Virus record (IMG/VR): IMGVR_UViG_3300037225_000325
Location: 1-54,618 of that record
Reading direction: 5' to 3' (one strand)
DNA from: a virus
DNA length: 54,618 nt
A program made the position numbers and the translations under genes. This document shows, one piece after another, positions 23,778-39,013 of this stretch. Every line of letters begins with the position of its first letter. Position 1 is the stretch's first letter. The notes under the pieces are model-generated. The model saw only the letters and a program-made list of their open reading frames with translations. It had not been told where the DNA came from and searched no databases.

Positions 23778-24062
23778 ATGAAAAAGGTTTGCAGAATAAA
23801 TCTTTTTGGTGAAGATGTACAGGTTTATCAGAGCGCCCATTTTTGCTATGCGACGACATCCGAGGGTATTTGGACTGCGGACGATCCCACGGCTCCCGAT
23901 GACAGATGGACGCCGCTTGACGAGACCATAGAGCGCCTCCGTGGAGCGGTAACACAATCCTATCGGACCATTACCGAGCTTTGCCGCGACAATGACGATC
24001 CACTTGCCAGCAATGCAGGGCTTATCCGCCCACTGCTCAGACAAGCTGTGCCGGGGCTGTAA
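23778..24062 (+). CDS. Hypothetical protein (94 aa; 106 aa if leaderless)
   Basis: The ATG at 23778 has GGAGGG 4 nt upstream. The same frame also has an ATG at 23742, placed exactly at the predicted transcription start, so two products are possible. Sequence: KKVCRINLFGEDVQVYQSAH, then WTADDPTAPDDRWTPLDETI and a helical end. No family recognised. First gene of a plus-strand operon with ribbon-helix-helix proteins. Confidence 0.6.
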   Translation: MKKVCRINLFGEDVQVYQSAHFCYATTSEGIWTADDPTAPDDRWTPLDETIERLRGAVTQSYRTITELCRDNDDPLASNAGLIRPLLRQAVPGL

Positions 24063-24063
24063 G

Positions 24064-24498
24064 ATGGCTAACACAACTCCCGTCCTTGTCAGACTTTCTC
24101 CCGAAAAACTCGCCTTCCTGGATTCTGAGGCCGCACGTCTCGGGGTCCCAAGGGCAACGGTGATCCAATTGATGATAGAGGATAGCAAAAACCAGAAGGG
24201 GGATAAAATGACATTCAACGGGTCTCCGAAACAAAACAAATGGGCGGCGGAAATACTGAAGAGCGCAGCATTGACAGATGAGCAAATCGACAACCTCCTG
24301 AGATGGGGAGGCCCCACGATGTATAAAGCGGGCGTGATGGACGTAACGATAATCATAGACAACCGTAGCAGGCTCACGGCCTATGCTGATGCCCTCGGAA
24401 AACACTATCAGAAAACGGCTGAGGAAAAACAGGCTGTTGCTAATGAGGCTGCCAACATTGTTCACCACATCGCCGATTTTCACACCGGGAGAAATTAA
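24064..24498 (+). CDS. Ribbon-helix-helix protein with extra helical domain
   Basis: 144 residues. Residues 1-45 are an Arc/CopG-type ribbon-helix-helix: VLVRLSPEKLAFLDSEAARL then GVPRATVIQLMIED. The remainder (PKQNKWAAEILKSAALTDEQ onward) is a separate helical domain. Its N-terminus is almost identical to the next gene, pointing to a tandem duplication with gain or loss of the second domain. Likely a transcription repressor binding as a dimer; candidate target is the palindrome at 22092 or the AGTAT boxes. Confidence 0.7.
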   Translation: MANTTPVLVRLSPEKLAFLDSEAARLGVPRATVIQLMIEDSKNQKGDKMTFNGSPKQNKWAAEILKSAALTDEQIDNLLRWGGPTMYKAGVMDVTIIIDNRSRLTAYADALGKHYQKTAEEKQAVANEAANIVHHIADFHTGRN

Positions 24499-24499
24499 C

Positions 24500-24649
24500 A
24501 TGTCTAACTCAACCCCCGTCCTCGTCCGCCTCTCCCCCGACAAAATCGCGTTCCTGGACTCCGCGGCCGCCCGGCTCGGGGTCCCAAGGGCAACGGTGAT
24601 CCAATTGTGGATCGCCGAGAAACAGTGCGCGGGGAAAAAGGGGAAATAG
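24500..24649 (+). CDS. Short ribbon-helix-helix protein (49 aa)
   Basis: VLVRLSPDKIAFLDSAAARL then GVPRATVIQLWIAEK: the DNA-binding domain alone, paralogous to the first 45 residues of the preceding gene. GGGAG upstream. Could compete for the same operator or form mixed dimers (inference). Confidence 0.7.
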   Translation: MSNSTPVLVRLSPDKIAFLDSAAARLGVPRATVIQLWIAEKQCAGKKGK

Positions 24650-24910
24650 GCGCCTCCGGCGGCCCTTTCTTTTGCCTGTGTCTCAGCATAGAACCTCTTT
24701 CTTTCCTGTCCCTTTTCCGGGTGGTCCGGGGGAAGCAGCCAAAGAGGTTCGATAGTCCAGGGGCCCTAAAGTGAGCTTGGGACAGTCGAGGTCGTCAAAG
24801 ATCCCGGTATGCCGGTTGAGAGAAGACGATGGACCCTCGATGGATTTGATACGACTTCCATATACCCTTTCGGGCGAGGGAGGCGGAACCGCTTAGAACT
24901 CCCCCATAGC
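24650..24910. other. Non-coding block between converging transcripts
   Basis: About 260 bp without a credible gene. It holds 10-bp inverted arms GAACCTCTTT (24691-24700) and AAAGAGGTTC (24741-24750), and a GC-rich GCC/GGC turn followed by CTTTCTTTT near 24650-24672 that may end the plus transcript. On the minus strand 24686-24892 is open for 69 codons and reads protein-like (GSRIKSIEGPSSSL, LDCPKLTLGPLDYR) but has no ATG, GTG or TTG near its beginning. It could be a remnant gene or a second structured RNA. Confidence 0.4.
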
Positions 24911-24914
24911 ACAG

Positions 24915-24947
24915 AAAAACGGGCACCCTGATTTCTCAAAGTGCCCG
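24915..24947 (-). terminator. Rho-independent terminator of the small RNA
   Basis: Minus strand 7-bp arms CGGGCAC (24947-24941) and GTGCCCG (24926-24920) with a 14-nt loop, then five T. Strong and simple. Confidence 0.8.
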
Positions 24948-25042
24948 ATATGCTTTCGGCGTTTGTGGAGAACAGAAGGCACGAGGCTTTTTTGTTCACG
25001 CCGGGGAAGCCTACATCAAATTGTTGTCTACTATTCTCCACA
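24915..25042 (-). ncRNA. Candidate structured small RNA (~125 nt)
   Basis: It begins at the predicted start of the promoter at 25048-25076 and ends at an intrinsic terminator. The first nine bases (TGTGGAGAA, 25042-25034) pair perfectly with TTCTCCACA (24972-24964). Inside, AGGCTT (25012-25007) pairs with AAGCCT (24989-24984). The loop CGGCGT (25003-24998) can pair with ACGCCG (24962-24957) beyond the outer stem, forming a pseudoknot. The 3' hairpin CGGGCAC/GTGCCCG is followed by TTTTT. No gene follows on this strand, so it is not a leader. A competing reading is a leaderless GTG frame (25041-24766, 91 codons), but that would run through the terminator. Confidence 0.62.
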
Positions 25043-25047
25043 TCCTT

Positions 25048-25076
25048 AGTGTAGAGACCTTACGGATGGATGTCAA
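25048..25076 (-). promoter_or_regulatory. Sigma70-type promoter for the small RNA
   Basis: Minus strand TTGACA, 17-nt spacer, TACACT. Expected +1 is at 25041-25042, which is also the first base of the outer stem of the RNA. Between here and the next gene (25196) there is about 120 bp with no convincing feature other than a weaker TTGACA-17-TTTATC at 25164-25192. Confidence 0.65.
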
Positions 25077-25195
25077 GGTTTATTTTGTCCGGCCCGTAAC
25101 CTTACCGCCCTTGGTAGCCTCTCGGCCCCTATACCCAGGCAAATGAGTTTGTGGAGTTGTGGCGATAAATTCTCGGGCCGGACGTTTGTCAAATT

Positions 25196-25504
25196 CTATC
25201 CCTCCACGGGCGCCGCAGGCTCTGCCGGTTTCGCTGCTGCTTCGAGGGTATCTGCCAGAGCATTGAGCTTGTCTACGGCTGTTTCGATGGCCGGGGTGTC
25301 GTCTATTCCGTATGCCTGCGAGACCTGATCGGCCAGGGCCTTAATCTCCGTCACTGCATCATTCACCGCCGTCTGAATCTTGATTACCACTGCCGCCAAA
25401 TCGTCTAACGCTGCCATGATTCGTGCCTCCATGTTTTTGATTTCCTGCAACTCCTGCAGGATTGAAGCCCGGTTCCACCGTTTCCACCATATCGGATATC
25501 CCAA
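25196..25504 (-). CDS. Small helical protein (coiled coil, ~102 aa)
   Basis: Best start is a TTG at 25504 preceded by AAAGGAGGTAAC; an internal ATG at 25417 after GGAGG is also possible (73 residues). The sequence is a long amphipathic helix (LDDLAAVVIKIQTAVNDAVT, IETAVDKLNALADTLEAAAK) with a Pro/Ala tail. It resembles small phage coiled-coil proteins of unknown role. Last gene of the replication operon. Confidence 0.65.
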   Translation of the reverse strand: MGYPIWWKRWNRASILQELQEIKNMEARIMAALDDLAAVVIKIQTAVNDAVTEIKALADQVSQAYGIDDTPAIETAVDKLNALADTLEAAAKPAEPAAPVEG

Positions 25505-25559
25505 GTTACCTCCTTTCCTTGCTCCTGGCGTTCGGTGACGCAACTTTCATAGCGTGAGG

Positions 25560-26042
25560 CTACCTTGTCATTCTTTCCTCTGCAAGCACTGCGACCCCCA
25601 GAGCGGCAAAGTTGTGGTCACTCCACCCCGGCACCGTCAATGAGCCCGACTTGCTCCGTTTGTGGGCCATTCCAAATCTTTCCACCATACATTCTTTGAG
25701 CCACCTGTCCGCACCTTTCTTCTCGATGCTGAACGCCTTCAGGACATCGCTTCGGGGTATCTTCCATACCGGAAGCGTGACGCCCTTAGCGGCCTGCTCG
25801 AAACGTCCTACCCATTCGCAGGTTTCCAGGGTATCATTGCCTACCTGCTGGCCATAGGACCGAATGCGTTCGATAACGACAAGACCTACTTTTGCTATAA
25901 CCCCTTCACGGAAGCTTGGCAGCGATAGAAATTCACACATCTTTTCGTTTTCTATGTGGCCTGGCTCGCCCGTTTGCTTGTCTGTATCCCAAAGGACGTA
26001 CGCGCTCATTGTCTGACCCGGATCGATAGCAAGTAGCTTCAC
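25560..26042 (-). CDS. RuvC-like Holliday junction resolvase
   Basis: 160 residues from GTG at 26042 with AAGGAGG upstream. RNase H-like catalytic pattern: LLAIDPGQTMSAYVLWD (D7), VGLVVIERIRSYG (E58) and PGWSDHNFAALGVAVLAEE (D142, next to H143). These match RuvC-type phage resolvases, which cut branched DNA during replication or before packaging. Located in the replication operon. Confidence 0.8.
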   Translation of the reverse strand: MKLLAIDPGQTMSAYVLWDTDKQTGEPGHIENEKMCEFLSLPSFREGVIAKVGLVVIERIRSYGQQVGNDTLETCEWVGRFEQAAKGVTLPVWKIPRSDVLKAFSIEKKGADRWLKECMVERFGMAHKRSKSGSLTVPGWSDHNFAALGVAVLAEERMTR

Positions 26043-29759: not shown

Positions 29760-29931
29760 TACCTTAACGATGGAAACAGGAGACACCAAGATGAAATGGC
29801 ATTTGCCCTGGACGACAAATACTTTAAACCACTGGCCCGGGCAACTTAAATCATGCTGCCCATCTCTCAAATCCACACTCTCTCACATCGGCGTATTGCT
29901 CTGTGGGTGGGCGGCAAAAAAGGAGGAAAGA

Positions 29932-30810
29932 ATGGCTACTTTTACGATTATGCACCTATTCAATGATTCAGTCCTGTTTGAGATTGAGGCCGATAGTTTC
30001 ATAAAAGCCGTTGAAGCGGCGCTTAAAGCACGTGCCGACCTTCAGGGTGCCAACCTTCGGGGTGCCAACCTTCGGGGTGCCAACCTTCGGGGTGCCGTCC
30101 TTCGGGATGCCAACCTTCAGGGTGCCGACCTTCAGGGTGCCGTCCTTTGGGGTGCCAACCTTCAGGATGCCAACCTTCGGGGTGCCGACCTTCGGGGTGC
30201 CAACCTTCGGGGTGCCGACCTTCGGGGTGCCGTCCTTCGGGATGCCAACCTTCAGGATGCCAACCTTCAGGGTGCCGACCTTCGGGGTGCCAACCTTTGG
30301 GGTGCCAACCTTCGGGGTGCCAACCTTCGGGGTGCCGACCTTCAGGGTGCCGACCTTCAGGGTGCCAACCTTTGGGGTGCCAACCTTCGGGATGCCAACC
30401 TTCAGGATGCCAACCTTCAGGGGGCCGACCTTCGGGGTGCCGACCTTCAGGGTGCCAACCTTCGGGGTGCCAACCTTCGGGGTGCCAACCTTCGGGGTGC
30501 CAACCTTCGGGGTGCCGACCTTCGGGATTTTCTCAGCACTAATTCCGTCCAAACAGTACTTACTATCACCGATTGGGGGCAACTGCCCGATGATCTTACC
30601 CTCGAACTAATGCGCCACGATGCCGAATCGTGCGGGGAAGAGGCAATGACTGTATGGGCCAAGGGCGGGGCCTGCCCGTTTAATAACAGTGTCCGTGATT
30701 ATAAATTCACCGAGAGCCACGCCCTATGGCAACCAGGTCCGCCCACGATGAGAGGCCGCAAGTTGCTTGAAGCGCTTTGGGTCAGCAAAGGAGGCCGCAT
30801 ATGGGATTGA
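29932..30810 (+). CDS. Pentapeptide repeat protein
   Basis: 292 residues from the ATG at 29932 (AAGGAGGAAAGA upstream); the frame is open back to an ATG at 29770 that lies just after the promoter, so a longer form with 54 extra residues is possible. Residues 1-34 are a short N-terminal domain. Residues 35-199 are 33 uninterrupted pentapeptides of type A(N/D/V)L(R/Q/W)(G/D). The C-terminal ~93 residues (LPDDLTLELMRHDAESCGEE ...) form a separate domain with two Cys. Long pentapeptide helices can mimic DNA and act on gyrase (Qnr, MfpA); here that is only a possibility. Confidence 0.85.
   Translation: MATFTIMHLFNDSVLFEIEADSFIKAVEAALKARADLQGANLRGANLRGANLRGAVLRDANLQGADLQGAVLWGANLQDANLRGADLRGANLRGADLRGAVLRDANLQDANLQGADLRGANLWGANLRGANLRGADLQGADLQGANLWGANLRDANLQDANLQGADLRGADLQGANLRGANLRGANLRGANLRGADLRDFLSTNSVQTVLTITDWGQLPDDLTLELMRHDAESCGEEAMTVWAKGGACPFNNSVRDYKFTESHALWQPGPPTMRGRKLLEALWVSKGGRIWD
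30034..30528 (+). repeat. 15-bp tandem repeat tract (33 copies) inside the pentapeptide gene
   Basis: Units of the type GGTGCCAACCTTCGG with very few variable bases (AAC/GAC/GTC; CGG/CAG/TGG; GGT/GAT). Nucleotide identity is far higher than protein constraint requires, indicating recent expansion. Because the unit is a multiple of 3, other frames and the minus strand also stay open; these are shadows. Confidence 0.9.
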
Positions 30811-36782: not shown

Positions 36783-36833
36783 ATGGCTGACATTTTATCC
36801 GATTTACGAGATGCCGACGAGAGGGGAAGATGA
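36783..36833 (+). CDS. Possible 16-aa leader peptide of the helicase-methyltransferase
   Basis: MADILSDLRDADERGR; its stop overlaps the ATG of the large gene (ATGA). Purely positional support. Confidence 0.3.
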   Translation: MADILSDLRDADERGR

Positions 36834-39013
36834 ACTATAAGGATTTTCTCACCTCTAAGCGTCTCATTGTAGGATCATCGGGCATATCGGTTTATGATTC
36901 CGACATCCATCAGATGCTATTTCCCTTTCAGCGTGACCTTGTTAGATGGGCCTGCAAGAAAGGCAAGTCTGCCATTTTTGCAGATACCGGCCTTGGCAAG
37001 ACCTTCATGCAACTTGAATGGGCACGGCTCATGGCCAAGAAGGCCTTCATAGTCGCCCCTCTCTCCGTGGCAAGGCAGACAGTCAAGGAAGCGCAAAAGA
37101 TAGGCATCACGGTCAATTACTGCCGTTCCCAGGCGCAAACCACGGACGGCCTGAATATCACCAACTATGAAATGATAGAAGCGTTTGACCCCTCAGCCTT
37201 CGATGCCGTGGTCCTTGATGAATCATCCATTTTGAAATCAATAGCAGGGAAGATAAAAGCCAAAATGATAGAAATGTTCGCGGAGACCCCTTATCGTCTA
37301 TGCTGTACGGCTACCCCGGCCCCGAATGACATAGCTGAGATTGCCAACCATGCGGAGTTTTTGGGTATTATGTCGCGGGTAGATATGCTTGCAACCTTCT
37401 TTGTCCATGACGATGAAGGGTGGCGGCTTAAAGGCCATGCTGAAGAACCGTTCTACCGATGGATGGCATCGTGGGGCATGTCGATCAGAAAACCGTCAGA
37501 CCTCGGATACGATGACGATGGGTACATTTTACCGCCTCTTACGATTGAGCCGGTGTTTGTCGATACGACTGTGGCCCCGGATGGTCAGTTATTCTTTACT
37601 GGCTTGAAGGGCATAACTGACAGGTCTGCGGTACGGAAGGCGACCGTGCATGACCGGATGACTTTGGCCGCGTCTCTCGTCAACGGTGACGGGGAACAAT
37701 GGATTATATGGTGCGGATTGAACGATGAGGCCGATGGAATAGCGCGGCTTCTGTCGGATTCAGTCAACATTAAGGGGTCCATGTCGATTGAGGCAAAGAT
37801 AGCAGGGATTGAAGGGTTTCAAGATGGAATGATAAGGACGCTCATTTCAAAACCAAAAATAGCCGGGCATGGCCTGAATATGCAAATGTGCCATAACATG
37901 GTATTTCTCGGGCTGTCTGATTCCTACGAGGCCTATTATCAGTGCATCAGACGCTGTTATCGATTCGGACAGACCAAGCCCGTAAGGGTCTTTATCGTCC
38001 TGTCTGAAATGGAGCGGGATATTTTCAGGAATGTTCAAAACAAGGAAAGGGAGGCCCGGAAGATGGGAGACCGATTGATCGAACACGTTAAACAGTACGA
38101 GAAGGCGGAGATTGAAGAACTGGGCATGGAGTTTATCTACGAGACGGAGACCGTTAAGCACGATGAATACACGATGATGCTCGGTGATTCCGTGGAGAGG
38201 ATGAAGGAAATACGGAATAACTCCATCGGATTATCGGTGTTTTCGCCGCCGTTCATGTCGCTGTACACCTATTCCCCCACTGAGCACGACGTAGGAAATA
38301 GTCGGGGAGAAGAAGAGTTTTTCGGTCACTTCGGGTTTATCATGGACGAGTTGAAGCGCGTCACCAAGCCGGGACGGTTGTGTTGCGTCCATGTTGCCCA
38401 AGTCCCTGCCATGCTTGTCCGTGACGGGTATATCGGGATGAAAGATTTCAGAGGCAAAACCATCATGGCTTACGAGGACCACGGATGGATTTATCAGGGC
38501 GAGTGTTGCATCGACAAAGACCCCCAAGCCCAGGCCATCAGGACACATAGCAAGGGTTTGTTGTTCGCTCAGTTGAAGCGGGATGCCTCATGGCTACGTC
38601 CCGCCCTTGCCGATTACATTCTGGTATTCAGGGCACCAGGAGACAACGAAAGCGCTATCCTTCCAGACCTTACAAATGATGAATGGATCGAGTTCGCAAG
38701 GCCTATTTGGTATGGAATCCGAGAGACAGACACCTTGAACTTCACTGAGGCCCGTACCGACAAAGATGAGCGGCATATATGCCCCTTACAGCTTGGCACG
38801 ATAGAGCGGTGTATCCGGCTTTGGAGTAATGCAGGCGATACCGTCCTGTCTCCTTTCGCCGGGATAGGGTCAGAGGGGTATCAGGCTTTGAAACTTGGCA
38901 GGAGGTTTGTAGGTATCGAATTGAAGAAGGCGTACTACCAGACAGCCCTGAAAAACCTTGAATTGGCCCTGAAAGAACGGAATGCCGGGACACTCTTCGA
39001 GGCCACTCTATGA
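36830..39013 (+). CDS. Helicase-DNA methyltransferase fusion
   Basis: 727 residues. Residues 1-440: SNF2-type superfamily 2 helicase with Walker A FADTGLGKT (50-58), VVLDESS (motif II, DES), CCTATPAPND (motif III) and YYQCIRRCYRFGQTKPV (motif VI). Residues ~440-727: DNA methyltransferase with VFSPPFMSLY (SPPF motif IV, ~470) and VLSPFAGIGSEGYQALKLGR then RFVGIELKKAYY (SAM motif I, ~675-705), so the catalytic motif precedes the SAM motif (beta-class order). SPP-type motif IV suggests N4-cytosine or N6-adenine methylation. Probably modifies phage DNA against host restriction. No partner nuclease domain is visible. Confidence 0.88.
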   Translation: MNYKDFLTSKRLIVGSSGISVYDSDIHQMLFPFQRDLVRWACKKGKSAIFADTGLGKTFMQLEWARLMAKKAFIVAPLSVARQTVKEAQKIGITVNYCRSQAQTTDGLNITNYEMIEAFDPSAFDAVVLDESSILKSIAGKIKAKMIEMFAETPYRLCCTATPAPNDIAEIANHAEFLGIMSRVDMLATFFVHDDEGWRLKGHAEEPFYRWMASWGMSIRKPSDLGYDDDGYILPPLTIEPVFVDTTVAPDGQLFFTGLKGITDRSAVRKATVHDRMTLAASLVNGDGEQWIIWCGLNDEADGIARLLSDSVNIKGSMSIEAKIAGIEGFQDGMIRTLISKPKIAGHGLNMQMCHNMVFLGLSDSYEAYYQCIRRCYRFGQTKPVRVFIVLSEMERDIFRNVQNKEREARKMGDRLIEHVKQYEKAEIEELGMEFIYETETVKHDEYTMMLGDSVERMKEIRNNSIGLSVFSPPFMSLYTYSPTEHDVGNSRGEEEFFGHFGFIMDELKRVTKPGRLCCVHVAQVPAMLVRDGYIGMKDFRGKTIMAYEDHGWIYQGECCIDKDPQAQAIRTHSKGLLFAQLKRDASWLRPALADYILVFRAPGDNESAILPDLTNDEWIEFARPIWYGIRETDTLNFTEARTDKDERHICPLQLGTIERCIRLWSNAGDTVLSPFAGIGSEGYQALKLGRRFVGIELKKAYYQTALKNLELALKERNAGTLFEATL

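What the first reader, a model, noticed from the sequence alone, without database searches (positions are those of the whole stretch)
24915..25076. Stand-alone structured RNA with promoter, 9-bp closing stem, pseudoknot and terminator
Promoter (TTGACA-17-TACACT), predicted +1 exactly at the first base of the 9-bp outer stem, an internal 6-bp stem, a 6-bp pseudoknot pairing CGGCGT with ACGCCG, and a clean terminator. The transcript would be about 125 nt. It matches no riboswitch, tRNA, tmRNA or 6S pattern I know. No gene follows on that strand, so a trans-acting role is plausible, such as regulating the replication or ribbon-helix-helix genes nearby.
Basis: partly seen in the sequence, partly recalled or inferred. 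Interest (0 to 1): 0.75.

Follow-up and report, generated by a model that had tools for sequence, protein, structure and literature searches.

The report
Orphan phage small RNA gene
A bacterial virus known only from environmental DNA carries what looks like a complete, self-contained gene for a folded RNA of about 125 bases with no known relatives, which may switch off a small DNA-binding regulator encoded next to it; this is predicted from sequence and not yet shown to be made.

Summary
On the minus strand at 25076-24915 there is a sigma-70-type promoter, a 9-bp stem (12 bp with one G-U pair) starting within about 1 nt of the predicted +1, a 6-bp hairpin, a possible 6-bp pseudoknot and a 12-bp terminator with GAAA loop and T5 tract. 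It is the only such promoter-terminator unit in this tailed-phage contig. The joint arrangement appeared in none of 150 shuffled strands, and the fold is an outlier (z about -4 to -5). The pseudoknot alone is weak (about 4% by loop shuffling). Rfam has no match. The 91-aa overlapping ORF does not look coding. No homologue was found, so covariation could not be tested: the nearest relatives' contigs end before this region. Most likely it is a stand-alone phage regulatory RNA. The best candidate target inside the phage is the second of two tandem ribbon-helix-helix genes (start 24500), where the hairpin loop and 5' linker pair collinearly with the ribosome-binding site and start (most unusual of 69 start regions by shuffles, P 0.0025; 0.7% of random genomic segments do as well). 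That link is suggestive only. Functional analogues are P22 sar RNA and pMV158 RNAII; membership is not shown. New member of a known kind.

The parts
25048..25076 (-). sigma-70-type promoter TTGACA-17-TACACT; +1 expected at about 25041-25043
   Evidence: 10 of 12; the only promoter-like site in 24400-25600
24915..25042 (-). predicted small RNA E1, about 125-128 nt
   Evidence: only promoter+terminator unit in the contig; fold z -4.1
25031..25042 (-). P1 5' arm UGUGGAGAAUAG (9 perfect pairs, 12 with one G-U)
   Evidence: pairing probabilities 0.81-1.0
24964..24975 (-). P1 3' arm CUGUUCUCCACA
25013..25030 (-). J1/2 linker UAGACAACAAUUUGAUGU; its UAGACA can pair with UGUCUA at codons 1-3 of the second RHH gene
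   Evidence: inference
24984..25012 (-). P2 hairpin AGGCUU/AAGCCU with 17-nt loop CCCCGGCGUGAACAAAA
   Evidence: pair probability about 0.55-0.59
24998..25003 (-). possible pseudoknot 5' strand CGGCGU; the same loop is the proposed target-binding seed
   Evidence: sequence; -9.1 kcal/mol as a duplex; 4% by loop shuffles
24957..24962 (-). possible pseudoknot 3' strand ACGCCG
   Evidence: sequence
24920..24947 (-). intrinsic terminator: 12-bp stem, GAAA loop, followed by T5 at 24919-24915
24500..24649 (+). second RHH gene (49 aa), candidate target; ribosome-binding region UUCACACCGGGAGAAAUUAACAUG
   Evidence: 73% identical over 48 aa to first RHH protein; beta-alpha-alpha model, best PDB matches CopG, MazE, Arc; pairing
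24064..24498 (+). first RHH gene (144 aa); GCCGGGG before its start is complementary to the P2 loop CCCCGGC
   Evidence: not significant against random genomic segments
24650..24675 (+). likely terminator of the RHH operon (GGCGCCTCCGGCGGCC then CTTTCTTTT)
   Evidence: read from sequence; bulged hairpin, not found by the automatic scans
25087..25183 (.). second structured element E2: 10-bp inverted repeat GTCCGGCCCG/CGGGCCGGAC, 77 nt apart, just upstream of the E1 promoter; no terminator; role unknown
   Evidence: (z -4.5 for 25080-25192)
24691..24750 (.). third inverted repeat E3: GAACCTCTTT/AAAGAGGTTC, 40 nt apart; role unknown

Best explanation
A stand-alone small regulatory RNA gene of a tailed phage. 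Host sigma-70-type RNA polymerase transcribes it from the promoter at 25076-25048; the RNA starts at the base of stem P1 and ends at the intrinsic terminator (inferred from sequence, strong). P1 and the terminator hairpin protect the ends, while the P2 loop and the 5' linker present unpaired sequence (predicted). These act as an antisense-type seed that pairs with the ribosome-binding site and start codon of the neighbouring ribbon-helix-helix gene at 24500, and perhaps its paralogue at 24064, and lower their translation (inferred, weak to moderate). The possible pseudoknot would mask the same loop, so it could act as a lock that opens on target binding (speculative).
For: Promoter, stem at +1 and terminator together: 1 in the window, 0 in 150 shuffles. 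It is the only promoter-terminator unit in the contig and has its strongest terminator. Fold z -4.1, with 1 of 872 tiles as stable. The overlapping ORF does not look coding. Target: with E1 positions 13-53, the start region of the second RHH gene is the most unusual of 69 by dinucleotide shuffle (P 0.0025, z -3.9). Counting target opening cost, the P2 loop ranks the two RHH sites 2nd and 3rd of 69, a rank sum matched by 1 of 120 loop shuffles. The pairing is collinear: UAGACA with UGUCUA, then CCCCGG-C-GUGAA with UUCAC-A-CCGGG over the Shine-Dalgarno region. The neighbour really has an RHH-type fold.
Against: There is no expression evidence and no homologue, so no covariation. Against 15,252 random genomic 41-nt segments the RHH2 pairing is at 0.7% and the RHH1 pairing at 32%, so RHH1 is not convincing, and 0.0025 over 69 regions is not significant without the prior focus on neighbours. 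Using the whole RNA, the RHH genes are not at the top. P2 is only about 57% paired. Host targets could not be searched because the host is unknown.
Confidence: 0.5

Rival explanations
1. A stand-alone phage small RNA whose real target lies in the host (as for lambda PreS acting on dnaN) or which sponges a host sRNA or protein; the RHH complementarity is chance.
For: The transcription unit is strong, while the phage-internal target evidence is modest. Phage RNAs with host targets are known (PMC12197685).
Against: The host is unknown, so no host target could be scored; the neighbouring RHH2 site scores better than any other phage start region by shuffle P.
Confidence: 0.27
2. Only an operon end: the strong hairpin at 24947-24920 is the terminator of the minus-strand replication operon (helicase, resolvase, 115-aa gene), and the promoter-like site and inverted repeat upstream are chance or 3'-UTR structure.
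For: The operon ends at 25196 with no terminator of its own before this one, and the two gene sets converge here. 9-bp inverted repeats are at chance level in the window as a whole.
Against: The 10-of-12 promoter with optimal spacing and the stem starting at +1 are not explained; the joint arrangement is absent from 150 shuffles.
Confidence: 0.15
3. A DNA-level element: inverted repeats of a replication origin or packaging (cos/pac) region, not a transcript.
For: Three perfect inverted repeats with 9-10-nt arms lie within 500 non-coding bases, where about 0.13 are expected, and terminase and replication genes are near.
Against: No iterons: only one 10-nt direct repeat. The small terminase gene is about 1.7 kb away with other genes between. 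Promoter and terminator point to transcription.
Confidence: 0.08

Closest known systems
Phage P22 sar RNA in the immI region (with RHH repressors Arc and Mnt)
   Same: Small phage RNA with its own promoter next to RHH repressor genes; proposed action by pairing with a translation start (PMC2629481, PMC12197685). The capsid protein here also matches P22-type coat proteins at 34-38% identity.
   Different: sar is cis-antisense to ant mRNA; here the RNA lies about 270 nt beyond the convergent RHH genes and complementarity is partial, so trans-type. No antirepressor gene was identified and no sequence relation shown.
pMV158 copG-repB module with antisense RNAII
   Same: RHH regulator (CopG is the top structural match of RHH2) combined with a small RNA that blocks translation initiation (PMC4485353).
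   Different: RNAII is encoded opposite to its target, repB; here the candidate target is the RHH gene itself and pairing is partial.
Phage lambda OOP RNA and PreS
   Same: Short phage sRNAs; OOP acts on a phage regulator mRNA, PreS acts in trans (PMC12197685).
   Different: OOP is perfectly antisense to cII; PreS acts on host dnaN and depends on Hfq. No sequence or structural relation shown.

Membership tests
Any Rfam 15 family (riboswitches, 6S, tmRNA, SRP, phage RNAs) | Match at the family's gathering score | tested here: not met
   none in the whole window; only chance-level hits up to E 10
cis-acting riboswitch or leader | A gene downstream in the same transcript, and switching overlap between aptamer and terminator | tested here: not met
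   No convincing minus-strand gene until the small terminase, about 1.7 kb away; the terminator stem does not overlap P1, P2 or the pseudoknot strands
Phage-encoded stand-alone regulatory sRNA (general kind) | Own promoter and terminator, non-coding, structured | tested here: met
   by sequence only
Phage-encoded stand-alone regulatory sRNA (general kind) | Transcript detected, with regulatory effect | not testable with these tools
   No RNA data are available
P22 sar-type or pMV158 RNAII-type cis-antisense RNA | Full complementarity because it is encoded opposite its target | tested here: not met
   The RNA lies beyond the RHH operon; the longest matches of 9 or more pairs to the operon, allowing one G-U, are 9-10 bp and lie outside the RBS; RBS pairing is partial
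Trans-acting base-pairing sRNA on RHH2 | Seed pairing over the RBS, better than chance | tested here: inconclusive
   Shuffle P 0.0025 and best of 69, but 0.7% of random genomic segments do as well
Conserved structured RNA | Homologues with compensatory changes in P1, P2 and pseudoknot | tested here: inconclusive
   No homologue found, so no covariation count possible; the relatives' contigs may simply lack the region

The most novel reading that the evidence does not exclude
A new RNA family in which a loop-3' pseudoknot spanning a closing stem hides the seed, and the RNA controls tandem RHH regulators in trans as part of a phage decision circuit.
Probability: 0.15. Interest if true: 0.6.

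Novelty: new member of a known kind. Interest (0 to 1): 0.4.

Why it matters
Few regulatory RNAs have been worked out for phages outside model systems. A compact promoter-RNA-terminator unit in an orphan phage, with no match in Rfam and a testable neighbouring target, is a clean candidate for a new phage sRNA. If confirmed it would be another case of an RHH regulator combined with a small RNA, as in P22 and pMV158, this time in trans.

Tried and rejected
Coding reading: ORF 25041-24766 scores -0.033 per codon, against a mean of 0.161 and a minimum of -0.027 for 90-codon pieces of confident genes; rejected.

Known RNA families: rejected. E3 contains GGTCCGGGGGAAGCAGCC, which reminded me of the SRP RNA tip, but no SRP family match appeared even at E 10; dropped.

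Homologue hunting: all 8 viral-contig scans and 2 genome-contig scans, phage and plasmid blastn and a single-sequence covariance model found no relative of the RNA. Five viral contigs share the outer 9-bp stem by chance, without the loop, pseudoknot or terminator. Hits to GTAGACAACAATTTGA include a coding VDNNLM stretch of other phages, judged chance. The match of the model to window 24876-24949 + (E 0.0027) is largely the terminator hairpin read on the opposite strand.

The idea that both RHH genes are targets was weakened by the genomic-segment control. A first target scan that included opening energies gave long, gapped duplexes and was discarded. A first genome-wide fold scan timed out.

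Full report
What the window is. The window is a whole 54,618-base virus record. It carries tailed-phage genes: large terminase-like and portal genes, a capsid protein resembling P22-type coat proteins at 34-38% identity, a DnaB-type helicase, a DnaG-type zinc ribbon, a Holliday junction resolvase and a small terminase. Its nearest relatives found are two viral contigs with 63-68% identical large terminase. The finding lies in a 547-base non-coding stretch (24650-25196) where the minus-strand replication operon and a plus-strand operon with two ribbon-helix-helix (RHH) genes converge.

The observation. Promoter TTGACA-17-TACACT (10 of 12) at 25076-25048; P1 9 bp at 25042-25034 / 24972-24964, extending to 12 bp with one G-U; P2 6 bp with a 17-nt loop; potential 6-bp pseudoknot between the P2 loop and the bases just after P1; a 12-bp terminator with GAAA loop followed by TTTTT. 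Minimum free energy is -45.3 kcal/mol with z -4.1. Only one of 872 non-overlapping 125-nt tiles on both strands reaches z -4.1.

Which parts are beyond chance. A 9-bp inverted repeat on its own is not: 16 were found where 18.7 are expected. The pseudoknot on its own is weak: a 6-bp helix between the P2 loop and another loop arises in 4.3% of loop shuffles. P2 itself is only about 55-59% paired in the ensemble. What stands out is the arrangement: promoter, stem starting at +1 and terminator soon after the closing arm occur together once in the window and never in 150 shuffled strands. A wider scan finds no second promoter-terminator unit in the contig, and this terminator is the strongest in it.

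Not coding. The 91-aa frame over the region scores -0.033 per codon against the phage's own codon usage; pieces of confident genes average 0.161 with a minimum of -0.027, while the neighbouring 115-aa gene scores 0.157.

No relatives. Rfam 15 gives nothing at gathering score and only chance hits at E up to 10. Blastn against phages found nothing and against plasmids only chance fragments. All viral-contig and genome-contig scans failed to bring a homologue of the RNA, as did a covariance model of the single sequence. Both related contigs with terminase end before the corresponding region: one stops inside the small terminase gene. Absence there is therefore uninformative, and covariation could not be tested.

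Likely mechanism. I scored the unpaired parts of the RNA against the start regions of 69 genes of the phage. The P2 loop pairs with GCCGGGG before the first RHH gene (start 24064) and with UUCAC-A-CCGGG before the second (start 24500); after subtracting the cost of opening the target these rank 2 and 3 of 69, and 1 of 120 shuffled loops gives as low a rank sum. In the second gene the 5' linker UAGACA also pairs, collinearly, with UGUCUA at the start codon. By dinucleotide shuffling this start region is the most unusual of the 69 (P 0.0025, z -3.9). A harsher control, random 41-nt pieces of the phage genome, puts the second gene at 0.7% and the first at 32%. I conclude that the second RHH gene is a fair candidate and the first is not supported by itself. 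The two RHH proteins are 73% identical over 48 residues; the model of the second has the beta-alpha-alpha layout (the strand is not called in the monomer model; two helices are) with CopG, MazE and Arc among the best structural matches, at weak E-values but probability up to 0.97.

Comparison. P22 has two RHH repressors, Arc and Mnt, and a small antisense RNA, sar (PMC2629481); sar pairs with ant mRNA and hinders its translation (PMC12197685). Plasmid pMV158 uses the RHH repressor CopG together with antisense RNAII (PMC4485353). The present RNA would work like these but is not a member: it is not encoded opposite its target and shows no sequence relation.

Other features. Two further perfect inverted repeats lie in the same 500 bases: 25087-25096/25174-25183 and 24691-24700/24741-24750. 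At the window's rate of such repeats (spacing 30 or more) about 0.13 would be expected in 500 bases and three, including P1, are there. The upstream one folds with z -4.5. An origin or packaging role for this stretch is a minor rival; no iterons were found.

Verdict. Shown by sequence: a complete, non-coding, structured transcription unit that is unlikely by chance. Inferred: that it is transcribed and acts as a regulatory RNA. Suggestive only: RHH2 as target, and the pseudoknot.

Noticed in passing
25087-25183: 10-bp inverted repeat GTCCGGCCCG/CGGGCCGGAC enclosing 77 nt directly after the 115-aa gene and just before the E1 promoter; folds with z -4.5 as minus-strand RNA, but has no U-tract.
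   Followed up: partly
24691-24750: 10-bp inverted repeat GAACCTCTTT/AAAGAGGTTC around a hairpin with GGTCCGGGGGAAGCAGCC, superficially like the SRP RNA tip; no Rfam support.
   Followed up: partly
24961-24970 and 25147-25156: Shared 10-mer GTTTGTGGAG: the P1 arm of E1 is repeated in the loop of the upstream inverted repeat, so the two could pair. Possibly chance.
   Followed up: no
23992-24649: Two tandem RHH genes, a recent duplication (73% identical over 48 aa), with the first carrying a C-terminal extension; no Pfam or PHROG family recognises them.
   Followed up: yes
29791-30810: Pentapeptide-repeat-like protein (long run of ANLRGADL repeats) in the phage.
   Followed up: no
36830-39013: Fusion of a SNF2/DEAD-type helicase with an N6/N4 DNA methylase in one 727-aa protein.
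   Followed up: no
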